Source: Haloterrigena salina JCM 13891 (GTDB lineage: Archaea; Halobacteriota; Halobacteria; Halobacteriales; Natrialbaceae). Taken from it: a stretch of DNA of 64,000 nucleotides. Below the pieces are notes generated by a model, which saw nothing but the letters and a program-made list of their open reading frames with translations, did not search any database and had not been told where the DNA came from. The translations under genes were made by a program, and so were the position numbers. This document shows positions 1,809 through 53,356 of the stretch, one piece after another. Where the stretch lies: the NCBI RefSeq assembly GCF_000337495.1, contig NZ_AOIS01000037.1, positions 1-64,000 on the forward strand. The letters are read 5' to 3'. The first letter of the stretch is position 1; every line of letters begins with the position of its first letter.

Positions 1809-2921
1809 ATGGACCTCCGCACCGCGTTTTTCGCCCTCCTGCTCGTGGTTCTCGGGGTGCTCTCGACCCTGGTCATCGCCCCGTTGTTGCAGTACGTGCT
1901 GGCCGCCGGGCTCCTCGCGTTCGTCCTCCGTCCCGCCCACGAGCGCCTCGAGCCGAAGCTCGGTCCGCGGCCGTCGGCGATCCTGTTGACCGGGGTCGCC
2001 GTCCTGGCCGCCGTCGTCCCGCTGTTGGTCATCTCGGCCGTCGTTTGGGGCACCGCCGTCTCTTTTCTCGACGAGTTCGACGAAGCGAGCGTCGTCGAGA
2101 GCGCCCGCGGGATCGCCGAAAACGGCCTCGGTCTCGAGGCCCAGCAGATCGACGCGATCGAGACGGCGGTTCACACCGAGATCGAGTCCTCGCTCTCGAG
2201 CGCGGTCGAACTCGCACTGGGCGAACTGATTCGGCTGGTCAACGCCAGCCTCGAGATGGCGATCGGGCTGTCCGTCTGCGTCTTCCTGCTCTACTACCTG
2301 CTCGTCGACGGGGACGATCTCGTCGCCTGGCTCGGCGACGTCGTCCCGCTCGACCCCGCCGTCCGCGACGAACTGTTCGCGGAGGTCCGCGTCGTCACCT
2401 GGGCCGTGATCTACAGTCACGTCCTCGTCGCGGTCGTTCAGGGGCTCCTCGGCGGAATCGGGCTCGCCGTGGTCGGCGTCCCGAACGCGGCCTTCTGGAC
2501 GGTGATCATGATCTTGCTCTCGTTCCTGCCGGCGATCGGCGTCTGGCTGGTCTGGGGGCCCGCCGCGGGGTATCTCGCGACGGTCGGCGACCCGCTCGCC
2601 GCCGTCGTTCTCCTCGCCTACGGCCTCACGGTCCTCGCGCTGATCGACAACTACCTGCGGGCGATCTTCGTCGATCGCGGCTCCGGCCTCCACCCGGCCG
2701 CCGTCATCGTCGGCGTCATCGGCGGGATCTACCTGCTTGGCATCATGGGGCTGTTCCTCGGACCGGTCCTGCTCGCGGTGTTCAAAGCCGGTATCAGCGT
2801 CTTCACCAGAGTCTCCGGCGAAGACGGCGACCAGTGGACGGACCCCGAACCCGACGCGAGCCCCGGACCCGCGGCGAGCGGGGCCGAGAAACCGCTTCCA
2901 GAGTCCGACGGCGCGGACTGA
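1809..2921 (+). CDS. AI-2E family transporter-like permease
   Basis: A 370-residue polytopic membrane protein of the AI-2E transporter family (TqsA/YdiK-like; bacterial members are linked to signal export or Na+/H+ exchange). The N-terminal helices (about residues 7-75), a soluble helical stretch (about 90-145) and a second cluster of helices (about 150-330) give the expected layout. The conserved late block with the DN(Y/F)L segment (IDNYLRAIFV) and a GILLGPVLLA-like end is visible. The tail after residue 335 is hydrophilic and Pro/Asp-rich. AT-rich DNA at about 1733-1790 probably holds the promoter. Substrate is unknown. Confidence 0.85.
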   Translation: MDLRTAFFALLLVVLGVLSTLVIAPLLQYVLAAGLLAFVLRPAHERLEPKLGPRPSAILLTGVAVLAAVVPLLVISAVVWGTAVSFLDEFDEASVVESARGIAENGLGLEAQQIDAIETAVHTEIESSLSSAVELALGELIRLVNASLEMAIGLSVCVFLLYYLLVDGDDLVAWLGDVVPLDPAVRDELFAEVRVVTWAVIYSHVLVAVVQGLLGGIGLAVVGVPNAAFWTVIMILLSFLPAIGVWLVWGPAAGYLATVGDPLAAVVLLAYGLTVLALIDNYLRAIFVDRGSGLHPAAVIVGVIGGIYLLGIMGLFLGPVLLAVFKAGISVFTRVSGEDGDQWTDPEPDASPGPAASGAEKPLPESDGAD

Positions 2922-2963
2922 CCGCTCGGGACCGGTGTTCTTCGGAAAAAGATCGAACCGGCG

Positions 2964-4400
2964 TCAGTCGGCGGTGTGGACGCGCTCGGTTCGGCGGGTC
3001 GTCGGCACGCCGAACCCGGTCAGGGCCATCGCGAACAACACGAGCGGCGACAGGAACCCGAACAGGTAGAACGGCGCGTACTCGAGGGTCGGGACGCCGG
3101 TCGCGGAGGCCATGAAGACGCCGCCGGCGTGCCACGGAAGGAGCGCGCCGGTCGGCGTCCCGGCGGCCTCGACGGCCCGCGAGAGTTCGTCGCTGTCCAG
3201 TCCGAACTCCTCGTAGAGGTTCCGCAGCGTCATTCCGGGGAGGACGATGCTCATGTACTGTTGGGCTGTCAGTACGTTGATCGCGATCGCGGAGACGCCG
3301 GTGCCGGCGATCAGGCTGCCGGAGCTCCGGACGCCCTGCGAGAGGCGATGGGCCAGCACCGCGAGCACGCCGGTTTTCTCGAGCAGGCCCCCGAGCGAGA
3401 GCGCCGCGACGACGACCGTGATCGTCCAGGCCGAGCCGGTGAGCCCGCCGGTCGCGAGCAAGTCGTCGACCAGACCCGACCCCGTTTCGGGGGCGGTGCC
3501 GCCCATGAAGATCTCCCACGCGGGGACGAAGCCGGTCCCCTGGAGGAGGATCGACGTGAGGACGCCCGCGATGGTCCCGCCGACGAGCGTCGGCAGGGCC
3601 GGATAGCCTCGCAGCGCGAGCCCGAAGGTGACCACGAGCGGGATGAACGCCAGCGGCGTGACGGAGTAGGACCCGGCCAGCGCGGTCTGTATCTCGGCGA
3701 CGCGGTCAGTCGGGACGCTCCCGCTGGCCTGCAGGCCGAGGACGGCGAAGATCGCGACGGCCACCCCGAAGGCGATGACCGTCCCGGTTCGCATCCGGCG
3801 AATGTGGTCGTACAGCGGCGTGTTCGTCACGCCGGCCGCGAGGTTCGTCGTGTCCGACAGCGGCGACTGCTTGTCGCCGGCGTAGGACCCCGAGAGGACC
3901 GCACCGACGGTCATCGCCGCGGGCACGCCCAGTCCCTCGCCGATGCCGACGAAGGCGACGCCCAGCGTCCCGACCGTCGTCCACGAGGACCCGATCGAGA
4001 ACGCGACGATCGCGGCCAGCACCGCGGCGACCGGCAGGAACACCGACGGCGAGAGCAACTCGAGGCCGTAGTACATCATCGCCGGAATCGTCCCGGCGTC
4101 GACCCAGGTCGCGATCAGCGCGTAAATCGTGAAGATGATCAACAGCGCCTGCAGTCCCATCAGGAGGCTGTTAGCGACGCCCTCGTAGAGGTCCTCCCAC
4201 GAGTAGCCCAGGTAATACCCGAAGGCGCCCGTGAAGACGATACTCCACAGCAGGGGGACGTGGGGGTCCAGCCCGAGTACGGCGGATCCCACGCCGAGGA
4301 AGAAGACGACGGCCAGCACCGGGACGAACGCGAGCGCGACGGAGGGCCGTCGCTCCGGTTCGAGGTCCTCGACCGTCGTCGGAGTGAAATCGAGTGCCAT
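2964..4400 (-). CDS. nhaC: NhaC-family Na+/H+ antiporter
   Basis: A 478-residue integral membrane protein of the NhaC ion-transporter superfamily, which exchanges Na+ for H+ and would aid pH and sodium balance in a salt-in organism. About 11-12 hydrophobic helices, and the typical SIGSSWTTVGTLG block followed by GDKQSPLSDTTNLA mark the ion-transport core. I chose the ATG at 4400; a GTG lies one codon upstream. It converges with the AI-2E gene and its promoter carries two adjoining palindromes (see separate entry). Ion specificity and direction are inferred from the family. Confidence 0.9.
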   Translation of the reverse strand: MALDFTPTTVEDLEPERRPSVALAFVPVLAVVFFLGVGSAVLGLDPHVPLLWSIVFTGAFGYYLGYSWEDLYEGVANSLLMGLQALLIIFTIYALIATWVDAGTIPAMMYYGLELLSPSVFLPVAAVLAAIVAFSIGSSWTTVGTLGVAFVGIGEGLGVPAAMTVGAVLSGSYAGDKQSPLSDTTNLAAGVTNTPLYDHIRRMRTGTVIAFGVAVAIFAVLGLQASGSVPTDRVAEIQTALAGSYSVTPLAFIPLVVTFGLALRGYPALPTLVGGTIAGVLTSILLQGTGFVPAWEIFMGGTAPETGSGLVDDLLATGGLTGSAWTITVVVAALSLGGLLEKTGVLAVLAHRLSQGVRSSGSLIAGTGVSAIAINVLTAQQYMSIVLPGMTLRNLYEEFGLDSDELSRAVEAAGTPTGALLPWHAGGVFMASATGVPTLEYAPFYLFGFLSPLVLFAMALTGFGVPTTRRTERVHTAD

Positions 4401-4420
4401 CACCCGTCGTATGCGTCTTG

Positions 4421-4455
4421 GGAATAAAAGAGGCGCGCCTTATTATTAATAATAA
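4421..4455 (-). promoter_or_regulatory. nhaC promoter with TATA box and two adjoining palindromes
   Basis: Reading toward nhaC, a perfect 16-base palindrome TTATTATTAATAATAA (4440-4455) abuts a perfect 8-base palindrome GGCGCGCC (4432-4439), then a TATA-like CTTTTATTCC (4421-4430) about 24 bases ahead of the ATG. This fits a leaderless promoter whose BRE position is covered by GGCGCGCC. The palindromes could be an operator; no regulator is identified. The rest of the gap up to 4734 shows no convincing gene or structure. Confidence 0.6.
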
Positions 4456-4734
4456 TTCATCGGAGAATGTCGACGGCAGTCTTACAGGTCTGCTGAACGA
4501 CGTCGTCCGAGGGTACAGCGGTGGAAGCCAGTGAATATCGGCGACTACAGATGCACAAAAACGTCCGATGTCAGTCAGCGAGAAGGGGACCGATCAGTGG
4601 CCGACAACGCTCGGCGGTGAACGAGGAACGCGAGGTCTCGGCGGAAAGCGAACGGATCGTTCGAGGGGGACTCGAGACGACGCGATACAACTCGAGTGAG
4701 CCGAAACCGATCGGCGGACCCGATCTCGTTCGCG

Positions 4735-4944
4735 TCAGTCGTCGGCCAATTCACCGTCTTCGGCGACCTCGGCGACTTCGGCGGCCTCAGCTGCCTCGAG
4801 TTCCTCGAGATACCGCTCGGCGTCGTACTGGATGTACCCCGTGACGAGGGCGATGACCCCGAGAACGAACAGCGGGACGCCGACGAGGACGACCAGCAGT
4901 CCCATCGCGGTGAGGAATTCGGTGCTGACGAGCGCCAGAGCCAT
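4735..4944 (-). CDS. small membrane protein with acidic tail
   Basis: A 69-residue hypothetical protein. Residues about 9-40 form one long or two short membrane helices (VLVGVPLFVLGVIALVTG), followed by a charged helix and a repetitive Ala/Glu/Val tail (EAAEAAEVAEVAED) that is probably helical and cytoplasmic. I do not recognise a family with a function. It starts at a clear ATG with acidic haloarchaeal composition, which supports real coding. It is separated from NreA upstream by about 340 bases of structured non-coding DNA. Confidence 0.6.
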   Translation of the reverse strand: MALALVSTEFLTAMGLLVVLVGVPLFVLGVIALVTGYIQYDAERYLEELEAAEAAEVAEVAEDGELADD

Positions 4945-5287
4945 ACCGACCGGACGCGCTCGAGCGATTTAGGCGTGCGGGTTCGTAGTCACACGGCTCG
5001 TTGAGTAGTGTGCTCGAGGGGGGAGCGTACTGAAACGAAGCGTCCTGCTATCGTGGCAACGGGGAGTGGCCACTCCCTCCCCAGCCGATTCACTCACGCG
5101 CAGGCTCACGGCTTCACCGTTCGCCATTCCGCGGCGCGCTGCGCCGCGCTCCGCTCGTTCGCTCATCCCTCGCGTGACTTCGTGCCGCGGCTCGCTATGC
5201 GCTCACCTCGGCACAGCACGCGCCATTACAGTGACCGTCTCGAGTGGGACAGGGATCACCAGTCCCGAACACGAGTTCCGTAGTCGA
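4945..5287. other. intergenic region with perfect palindromes, possible dispersed element
   Basis: No gene is evident in this 343-base gap. It holds a perfect 16-base palindrome GGGAGTGGCCACTCCC (5062-5077) and a perfect hairpin with 7-base arms gcggcgc/gcgccgc and a gct loop (5131-5147), followed by TCG/CTC-rich low-complexity DNA to about 5220. The hairpins lie downstream of nreA, so one may help end that transcript. The texture resembles non-coding segments often seen between haloarchaeal genes, but I cannot test whether copies exist elsewhere. Confidence 0.45.
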
Positions 5288-50073: not shown

Positions 50074-50553
50074 ATGACCAGAGCGCAGGGCGGACGGTTC
50101 GAACTCCGGGATCACACGGCTGACGTCGCAGTCGCGGCCAGCGGCGACGCACTCGAGTCAGTCTTCGCGGCGGTCGCCGACGGGCTGGCGGCCGCCTCCT
50201 GCGACGAGATCCCCGCGGAGTTGGGCGACCGATTCTCGCTCTCCGTGACCGCGGAGAACCGCGAGGCCCTGCTGTTCGACTATCTGGACGAACTGATCTA
50301 CCTCCGGGACGTCCGCGCGGAACTCCCCGTCGATCACCGCGTCGAGACGATCGCGAGTCCGGAACGCGACGGCGAGGGCGACGAGAGCGGCGACTGGCAC
50401 CTCGAGGCCAGCGCCCGCGGCGTCCCGCTGGCCGCGGTCGACGCTCGCGAGATCAAGGCCGTCACCTACTCCGAGATGCGCCTCGAGCGCCGCGGGGACG
50501 ATACTGGGAGCGGGGACGAGGGCTGGGAAGCCTACGTCGTCTTCGACGTCTGA
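50074..50553 (+). CDS. archease, RtcB-activating protein
   Basis: A 159-residue archease, which helps RtcB ligase reach its guanylylated state and turnover. The opening FELRDHTADVAVAASG holds the conserved Asp pair, LLFDYLDELIYLRD is the central motif, and the end VKAVTYSEMRLE with a C-terminal Val is diagnostic. The start is ATG at 50074. It is followed 110 bases on by a DoxX-like gene and then rtcB, all in the same direction, so archease and its client share a neighbourhood. Confidence 0.93.
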   Translation: MTRAQGGRFELRDHTADVAVAASGDALESVFAAVADGLAAASCDEIPAELGDRFSLSVTAENREALLFDYLDELIYLRDVRAELPVDHRVETIASPERDGEGDESGDWHLEASARGVPLAAVDAREIKAVTYSEMRLERRGDDTGSGDEGWEAYVVFDV

Positions 50554-50663
50554 TCGTTCGGTGATCGGCACCGGACGACCACGGACGGGAGTCGAGCGGG
50601 AACCGACCCGGCGATGAGTCTGCCGGGGGACGCATTTTGCTCGTGGCAATCGTAGCTTCAGCG

Positions 50664-51775
50664 ATGGACGCTCCCCTGCGTCGACTCCCGACCGGTCGGG
50701 TCGTCGGTCAGGCGGCGCTCGTCGCGGCGCCCTTGGTCAGTGCGAGCGAGACGGCGCGCGCACACGAAGAGTACGTCGTCGACGAGAAGCGCGAAGTTGC
50801 CGTCGCCGAGTTCCTCCGGGAGTCGCTGACGGACCCCCTCGTCGTCGGACCGCTGCTGGCGGGCGCGCTCGTCGTCCTCGCGGCGGTCGGAGGTTACCTG
50901 GTCGTTCGCCCCGTACAGCGAGACGTCGCGGTGTTCCGAGCCGCCATGCGGGAGTACACCGCGTACGTGCCCTGGCTGCTGCGGATCTCGATCGGCATCC
51001 CGCTGATCGGGGCCGGCTTCGGCGGCTACCTCATCAGTCCCGCGCTCGGCCTCGAGGCGCGACTCCTGCAGGTCGCGCTCGGCTTCCTGTTGCTGTTCGG
51101 GCTGGCGACGCGGCTGGTCGCCGTGCTCACGCTCGCCGTCTACCTCGTCGGCCTCGCGATCGACTCGATCCTGCTGTTGCAACTCGAGTTCGTGCCCGGA
51201 ACGCTGGCGATCGCGCTGCTCGGCGGCGGGCGACCGAGCGGGGATCACGTTCTCCAGCGGGTCGCCGGCACGCCGGGGACGGTCTACGGTCGGTTCGACC
51301 CGATCTACGACTACGCGCGCGAGTTTCAGACGCGGATCGATCCGTACCGCAGATTCCTGCCGACGATCGTCCGCGCGGGTCTCGGCTGCACGTTCGTCTC
51401 GCTGGGCCTGGGCCAGAAGCTCCTGCGACCCGGCATCGCGGTCGCGGTCGTCGACCGCTACGACCTGACCGCGGTCGTCCCCGCTGGTCCCGAACTGTGG
51501 GTCCTCGGCGCTGGCCTGTCGAAGTCGGTCTCGGACTCGCACTGTTATTTGGGTTCTTTACGCGGGCGAGCGCCGCGACGGCGATCGGCGTGTTCTCGCT
51601 CACGCTCTTCGTGCTGCCCGACGATCCGGTGCTCGCGCACGTCAGCCTCTTCGGACTGGCGTCGGCGTTGCTCATCACCGGGAGCGGCCCCTTCGCCGTC
51701 GACGGGTGGCTCGAGGGGCACGGGACCGACGAAGAGGCCGACGCACCGGATGCTGACGTACCGGATGCGGTGTGA
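50664..51775 (+). pseudogene. DoxX-like membrane protein gene broken by one-base frameshift
   Basis: The gene starts at the ATG at 50664 (MDAPLRRLP, signal-like or anchored N-terminus) and codes a DoxX-type membrane protein with several helices. At about 51518-51519 the frame changes by one lost base: the first frame ends its good sequence at ELWVLGAGL, and the next frame continues at once with VEVGLGLALLFGFFTR and then TM helices to a stop at 51775. Adding one G restores a 370-residue protein. A sequencing error or a genuine disruption is equally possible. Confidence 0.8.
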
Positions 51776-51889
51776 CCGTGCGGTCGCACGACGGTTTCGG
51801 CCGGACGATCCGGCGACGACGGTGGGAACAGCTAGCGATGCCGACCGGAGAGACGAACACCTTTCATCGATGGGGACCGATACTCGAGT

Positions 51890-53356
51890 ATGACCACGTT
51901 CGACGCCGACGACATCACGCTCGAGAAAGTGCGTGAGTACGTCTGGGAGATTCCACAGGAGGGCGATATGCGCGCGCCAGCGCGGGTACTCGCCAGCGAG
52001 GCGCTGCTCGAGGAGATCAAGGAGGACAAGACGCTCGAGCAGATCACGAACACGACTCACTTGCCCGGCATCACCAACTACGCGATCTGTATGCCCGACG
52101 GTCACCAGGGCTATGGCTTCCCGGTCGGCGGGGTGGGTGCACTCGACGCCGAAAACGGCTGCATTTCGCCGGGGGCGGTCGGGTACGACATCAACTGCGG
52201 CGTCCGGATGATGCGGACGAACCTGACCTACGACGAGCTACAGGGCCGCGAGGAGGAACTCGTCGACTCGCTGTTCGCGAACATTCCGTCTGGGCTGGGC
52301 GGCGGCGGCGTCGTCGAGGCCGGCGTCGACACTGTCGAGGAAATCCTCGAACGGGGCGTCGACTGGGCCCTCGAGCACGGGCACGCCGTCGAGGAGGACC
52401 TGCTGCACTGCGAGGACGAGGGGATGCGCGAGGGTGCCGATGCCGACAAGGTCAGCCAGAAGGCCAAGGACCGCGGGAAGAACCAGATCGGCTCGCTCGG
52501 GTCGGGCAATCACTTCCTCGAGGTCCAGCGCGTCACGGACGTCTTCGACGGCGACGTGGGCGCGGCCTACGGCCTCGAGGAGGACCAGATCGTCGTCCTG
52601 ATCCACTGTGGCTCCCGCGGGCTGGGCCACCAGACGTGTAACGACTACCTGCGCAAGATCGAGAAGCAACACCAGGGGCTGCTGAACCAGTTGCCGGACA
52701 AGGAACTCGCGGCCGCGCCCGCGGGCTCGCAACTCGCCGAGGACTACTACGCGGCGATGAACGCCGCAATCAACTTCGCGTGGGTCAACCGCCAGCTGAT
52801 CATGCACCGCACGCGGCAGGTCTTCGAGCGAGTGTTCGATCGGTCCTGGGAGTCCATGGACATGCACCTGCTGTACGACGTGGCGCACAACATCGCGAAG
52901 AAGGAAACCCACGTCGTCAACGACGACGGCGACGAGCGCGAGCTCTACGTCCACCGGAAGGGCGCCACGCGGGCGTTCCCCGCAGGCCATCCCGAAGTCC
53001 CGAAAGCCTACCGCGACGTCGGCCAGCCGGTCATCATCCCCGGCAGCATGGGCGCCGGGAGCTACGTCCTTCGCGGCGGCGAGAACTCCATGGACCTCAC
53101 CTTCGGTTCGACGGCCCACGGCGCAGGCCGGCTGATGAGCCGCACGCAGGCGAAAAGCGAGTACTGGGGCGGCGACGTCCAGCAGGAACTCGAGGAACAG
53201 GACCAGATCTACGTCAAGGCCCAGTCGGGCGCAACGGTCGCCGAGGAGGCCCCGGGCGTCTACAAGGACGTCGACGAGGTCGTCCGCGTCTCCGACGAAC
53301 TCGGCATCGGCGACAAGGTAGCGCGGACGTTCCCCGTCTGTAACATCAAGGGGTGA
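51890..53356 (+). CDS. rtcB: tRNA-splicing ligase RtcB
   Basis: A 488-residue GTP- and Mn-dependent RNA ligase that joins tRNA exons after intron removal and repairs 2',3'-cyclic phosphate ends. Metal and guanylylation residues are visible: Asp 100 and Cys 103 (GYDINCGVR), GSGNHFLE, and the GMP-accepting His 410 in GSTAHGAGR. Many archaeal RtcB genes carry an intein; here none is present and the length is the normal 480-490. Archease lies 1.3 kb upstream. ATG at 51890. Confidence 0.97.
   Translation: MTTFDADDITLEKVREYVWEIPQEGDMRAPARVLASEALLEEIKEDKTLEQITNTTHLPGITNYAICMPDGHQGYGFPVGGVGALDAENGCISPGAVGYDINCGVRMMRTNLTYDELQGREEELVDSLFANIPSGLGGGGVVEAGVDTVEEILERGVDWALEHGHAVEEDLLHCEDEGMREGADADKVSQKAKDRGKNQIGSLGSGNHFLEVQRVTDVFDGDVGAAYGLEEDQIVVLIHCGSRGLGHQTCNDYLRKIEKQHQGLLNQLPDKELAAAPAGSQLAEDYYAAMNAAINFAWVNRQLIMHRTRQVFERVFDRSWESMDMHLLYDVAHNIAKKETHVVNDDGDERELYVHRKGATRAFPAGHPEVPKAYRDVGQPVIIPGSMGAGSYVLRGGENSMDLTFGSTAHGAGRLMSRTQAKSEYWGGDVQQELEEQDQIYVKAQSGATVAEEAPGVYKDVDEVVRVSDELGIGDKVARTFPVCNIKG

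What the first reader, a model, noticed from the sequence alone, without database searches (positions are those of the whole stretch)
50664..51775. DoxX-like gene split by a single missing base between archease and rtcB
Frame one ends its good sequence at ELWVLGAGL; the adjoining frame resumes with VEVGLGLALLFGFFTR in perfect register if one G is added after CTG at 51516-51518. The rest of both halves is well-preserved, so the break is either very recent or an assembly error.
Basis: seen in the sequence. Interest (0 to 1): 0.5.

Follow-up and report, generated by a model that had tools for sequence, protein, structure and literature searches.

The report
Recently frameshifted DoxX-like membrane gene
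A membrane-protein gene lying between two RNA-repair genes of a salt-loving archaeon is interrupted by one missing base; several close relatives have damaged or lost the same gene in other ways, so this is most likely ordinary recent gene decay rather than anything exotic.

Summary
All 29 homologous loci from other genomes read through this point in one frame; none shares the gap. The intact copy of a congener passes Pfam's DoxX cut-off. 'Very recent or an assembly error' is a fair pair, and relatives tilt it towards a real, recent mutation. Of six genomes held for the genus, two are intact (G002, G004), the window has this break, G001 has its own 2-base deletion near codon 30, G003 has two in-frame deletions and a changed start codon, and G005 lacks the gene. 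In a strict scan of about 200-240 genes per genome, the window assembly has one other private 1-2 base frameshift, and G001's only one is in this same gene. dN/dS is moderately raised but far from neutral, so the decay is young. Error cannot be excluded without reads. An ordinary frameshift pseudogene, low interest.

The parts
50664..51520 (+). First, in-frame part of the DoxX-like gene (285 full codons and two bases): N-terminal signal/membrane segment, first DoxX-like unit, first half of the second unit
   Evidence: Translation; matches 29 other loci at 45-95% identity
51520..51521 (+). Site of the one-column gap relative to all homologues (third position of codon 286)
   Evidence: Codon-level alignment with four congeners; no other locus shares it
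51521..51775 (+). Remainder of the DoxX-like gene, in the adjoining frame, to its conserved stop
   Evidence: partial DoxX match 19.8 bits on its own, under the 23.6 cut-off
51522..51893 (+). Out-of-frame tail that the ribosome would read after the break; its stop overlaps the rtcB start codon
   Evidence: ORF 50637-51893; tail has no resemblance to the relatives' C-terminus
50074..50553 (+). Archease gene upstream (Pfam PF01951)
   Evidence: 103.3 bits
51890..53356 (+). rtcB, RNA ligase, downstream (Pfam PF01139), intact and without an intein
   Evidence: 552.9 bits

Best explanation
This is a real, very young frameshift in a dispensable chromosomal gene of a haloarchaeon (Natrialbaceae by its named relatives; that family name is my recall). 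The gene encodes a membrane protein with what look like two DoxX-like units in tandem. A one-base deletion (shown in the assembly) makes the ribosome leave the frame after residue 286 and add an unrelated tail of about 123 residues (follows from the sequence). That removes the second half of the second DoxX unit, so the product is probably non-functional or unstable (inferred). The gene is being lost piecemeal in this genus, and the other damaged copies carry other lesions (shown by alignment). Archease and rtcB on either side are intact, so RNA ligation should not be affected (inferred).
For: The frame is unbroken in 29 of 29 other loci. Of the six genomes held for the genus, two copies are intact (G002, G004), G001 has a 2-base deletion near codon 30, G003 has in-frame deletions of 168 and 108 bases plus M1 changed, and G005 has archease and rtcB about 117 bases apart with no gene between. 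In a strict scan of private 1-2 base frameshifts the window assembly has 2 (this one and 284404) in 201-225 genes depending on the query genome. G001 has 1 in 219-241, and it is this gene; a chance coincidence is about 0.009 (post hoc). Of 215 congener genes with hits in at least three of four other genomes, this is the only one with three different unshared lesions in three genomes. The site is not a long homopolymer, and the column carries three different letters among four congeners. dN/dS with the three other near-full-length congener copies is 0.23-0.30, against medians of 0.14-0.15 for about 200 genes: moderately relaxed, not neutral.
Against: No reads were available. The assembly is a draft of 71 contigs with Ns in this contig (17 in 364 kb). 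One N sits in a methyltransferase gene with about 20 bases missing, so assembly defects exist. Looser scans listed further single-base losses in the window assembly, at 169418 and 90729 and in the homologue of G002_301535, which raises the error rate somewhat. Private substitutions in the window copy number only 4 synonymous and 4 non-synonymous, too few to show that constraint has been lifted. G003 shows 7 private small frameshifts, 3 of them in one gene, so its assembly may be unreliable, although its two larger deletions in this gene are not of that type.
Confidence: 0.78

Rival explanations
1. The missing base is a consensus or assembly error and the living organism has an intact DoxX-like protein of about 374 residues.
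For: Draft assembly with Ns and a gapped gene elsewhere on the contig; both halves are well preserved; further single-base losses appear in looser scans.
Against: Only one other strict private small frameshift in 201-225 genes of this assembly; the gene is independently damaged or absent in three of five other genomes of the genus; the site is not a long homopolymer.
Confidence: 0.2
2. Programmed ribosomal frameshifting joins the two frames, so the gene is functional as it stands.
For: Both halves are still under mostly purifying constraint, as a frameshifted but translated gene would be.
Against: None of 29 homologous loci is split here, and congeners have their lesions at other places. I saw no classical slippery heptamer at the site (by eye; the motif is recalled).
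Confidence: 0.01
3. The truncated product with its new tail is a working shortened protein, its stop now overlapping the rtcB start and coupling the two genes in translation.
For: The shifted frame is open as far as a stop that overlaps the rtcB start codon.
Against: Half of the second DoxX unit is lost. The tail is out-of-frame GC-rich sequence. The overlap depends on the bases around the rtcB start, which the congeners also have, so it is likely to be coincidence.
Confidence: 0.01

Closest known systems
DoxX family (Pfam PF07681)
   Same: The intact congener copy matches above the curated cut-off (30.1 against 23.6 bits, residues 290-372 of the long ORF). The second half of the gene resembles a stretch in the middle of the first half in 10 of 30 loci, suggesting two DoxX-like units in tandem.
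   Different: About 374 residues with two units rather than one. In the window the second unit is cut by the frame break, and neither half reaches the cut-off alone.
Mycobacterium tuberculosis DoxX (Rv3005c), reported partner of SodA and SseA in a membrane oxidoreductase complex (PMC6930017, passages read)
   Same: A membrane protein with a DoxX domain; the nearest functional lead for the family.
   Different: Distant organism, different neighbourhood (archease and rtcB here). No functional equivalence was tested.
Frameshift pseudogenes and assembly frameshifts in prokaryote drafts
   Same: One missing base, both halves conserved, relatives intact.
   Different: Nothing of kind; the only notable point is the repeated independent damage within one genus.

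Membership tests
DoxX family (PF07681) | Match to the Pfam model above its curated cut-off | tested here: met
   Met by the intact congener copy (G004), 30.1 against 23.6 bits. The window's two halves alone do not reach it: none, and 19.8 bits.
DoxX family (PF07681) | Polytopic helical membrane protein of the DoxX fold | tested here: inconclusive
   The predicted structure is all helical but of very low confidence (mean pLDDT 38), so no fold search was made.
DoxX family (PF07681) | Oxidoreductase-linked function | not testable with these tools
   Only a literature lead for a mycobacterial member.
Frameshift pseudogene | Intact homologues read through the break in one frame | tested here: met
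   29 of 29 other loci; two of six genomes in the genus have the gene full-length and intact.
Frameshift pseudogene | The lesion is in the organism, not only in the assembly | not testable with these tools
   No reads; indirect support only.
Frameshift pseudogene | Relaxed selection after the break | tested here: inconclusive
   4 synonymous and 4 non-synonymous private changes; pairwise dN/dS 0.23-0.30 with the near-full-length congener copies.
Programmed frameshift gene | Split frames conserved in homologues | tested here: not met
   0 of 29 homologous loci are split at this place.

The most novel reading that the evidence does not exclude
A gene kept between archease and rtcB in many relatives (18 of 29 other loci have both neighbours within 1.5 kb) is being lost independently several times in one genus. 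That would point to a shared loss of need for this DoxX-like protein, possibly linked to a redox or RNA-repair role it has with its neighbours elsewhere.
Probability: 0.1. Interest if true: 0.35.

Novelty: new member of a known kind. Interest (0 to 1): 0.12.

Why it matters
It matters little in itself: it warns annotators that this DoxX-like gene is broken in the assembly, and that automatic mending as a sequencing error would probably be wrong. The repeated damage within one genus makes the archease-DoxX-rtcB cassette a small natural experiment on whether the DoxX-like protein has anything to do with RNA ligation. Its loss leaves both neighbours intact in the window, and G005 keeps both neighbours without it.

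Tried and rejected
Programmed frameshifting was rejected because no homologue is split at this place. A second intact copy elsewhere in the genome was looked for with the stretch around the break and not found: one match, itself. The four DoxX genes found by family search in the window's genome are at other places.

Structure prediction on seven named relatives gave a useless model (mean pLDDT 38.1), so no fold search was made.

First-pass frameshift scans were too crude. The tblastn version missed the target itself in the window assembly. The unfiltered blastn version listed 29 and 19 events against the window assembly, many of them gene-start artefacts. Searches tightened the criteria. The strict numbers drop events shared by two or more genomes, events longer than 2 bases, and events near gene ends; the looser lists hold a few more single-base losses for the window assembly, and these are told in the Against line.

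In one search the G004 ORF began too far upstream, which inflated dN/dS (0.395 and 0.371 in the G004 comparisons); the values on the true codons are.

Literature: 'archease', 'rtcB', 'haloarchaea' together gave one paper, seen as a listing only. 'DoxX' with 'haloarchaea' gave two, listing only. DoxX with SseA gave 17, of which 8 were listed and passages of one were read. A search for pseudogenes, frameshifts and homopolymers gave a listing only. No paper on this gene was seen in these searches.

Full report
What is there. On the + strand the window holds archease (50074-50553; PF01951, 103.3 bits), then a gene beginning at ATG 50664, then rtcB (51890-53356; PF01139, 552.9 bits). The middle gene reads well for 286 residues in one frame, and its last 80-odd residues lie in the adjoining frame up to the stop at 51773-51775. 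The frame that a ribosome would follow runs on, out of frame, to a stop that overlaps the rtcB start codon.

Is the break real relative to homologues? The first half was searched in 61 genomes. 31 of 61 have a match, and 30 loci were fetched, the window's own included. In 29 of 29 other loci the two halves abut in one frame. The alignment with four congeners puts the gap between 51520 and 51521, at the third position of a serine codon whose third base varies among the congeners, so the site is not a long homopolymer.

What the gene is. The intact copy in G004 matches DoxX (PF07681) at 30.1 bits against a cut-off of 23.6. In the window neither half reaches it: no match for the first half and 19.8 bits for the second. 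In 10 of 30 loci the second half also matches weakly within the middle of the first half, which suggests two DoxX-like units in tandem. The break falls in the second unit. A predicted structure was too poor to use. A mycobacterial DoxX protein is reported in a membrane oxidoreductase complex with SodA and SseA (PMC6930017, passages read); that is a lead only.

Neighbourhood. 19 of 30 loci, the window's included, have both archease and rtcB within the 1.5-kb flanks; 3 have archease only, 1 has rtcB only and 7 have neither.

The genus. Six genomes are held for the genus, and all match the archease-rtcB region. G002 and G004 have the gene intact. The window's genome has the one-base gap. G001 has a 2-base deletion near codon 30, inside a short CG repeat. 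G003 has in-frame deletions of 168 and 108 bases, with its open frame preserved, and M1 changed. G005 has archease and rtcB about 117 bases apart with nothing of the gene, and no match to the second half (5 of 6 genomes match).

Error or mutation? Over the syntenic region (364 kb of the window's contig against 380-400 kb of each of four congeners), private frameshifts of 1-2 bases under strict rules number 2 in the window's genome (this gene and one at 284404, in a run of C near the 3' end of a 2-hydroxyacid dehydrogenase-like gene), 1 in G001 (this same gene), 2 in G002, 7 in G003 and 1 in G004, each out of about 200-240 genes depending on the query genome. That G001's only event falls in one of the window genome's two genes has a chance probability of about 0.009; this is post hoc. 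In another count, of 215 G004 genes with hits in at least three of four other genomes, 10 have lesions or poor coverage in two or more, and this is the only one with three different unshared lesions in three genomes. The same scan run with 207 G002 genes did not list the target, because the target was not among its listed multi-lesion genes (I did not find out whether the gene caller took it up there). Against a real lesion, looser scans list further single-base losses in the window's genome, and the assembly has Ns, one inside a damaged methyltransferase gene. A recent, real lesion is therefore favoured but not proved.

Age. dN/dS between the window copy and the near-full-length congener copies is 0.231 (G004), 0.274 (G001) and 0.302 (G002); pairs with G003 are 0.40-0.48. 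Medians over 195-224 genes of the region are 0.136-0.151, with upper quartiles of 0.206-0.232. The gene is thus less constrained than most but not neutral, and the window's private changes (4 synonymous, 4 non-synonymous) are too few to show decay beyond the one lesion.

Verdict. An ordinary, probably real and very young frameshift in a dispensable DoxX-like gene. Interest is low.

Noticed in passing
L187 about 2017-4961 (G005 rtcB): rtcB of congener G005 has an in-frame insertion of about 470 residues with intein-like ends (Cys at the start, Asn before the next Cys), interrupting the conserved stretch before CGVRMM; NCBIfam has intein-containing RtcB models. The window's rtcB has none.
   Followed up: partly
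G000:C37:222265 (L114, about 18265): A lone N with about 20 bases missing inside a methyltransferase gene, relative to two congeners: an assembly gap.
   Followed up: partly
G000:C37:284404 (L118, about 404): Another single-base loss private to the window's genome, in a run of C near the 3' end of a 2-hydroxyacid dehydrogenase-like gene.
   Followed up: partly
G003, syntenic region (L146-L164): Seven private single-base losses, three of them in one gene, suggesting that the G003 assembly carries uncorrected errors.
   Followed up: no
window 51890-51893: The stop of the shifted frame of the broken gene overlaps the start codon of rtcB; probably coincidence.
   Followed up: no
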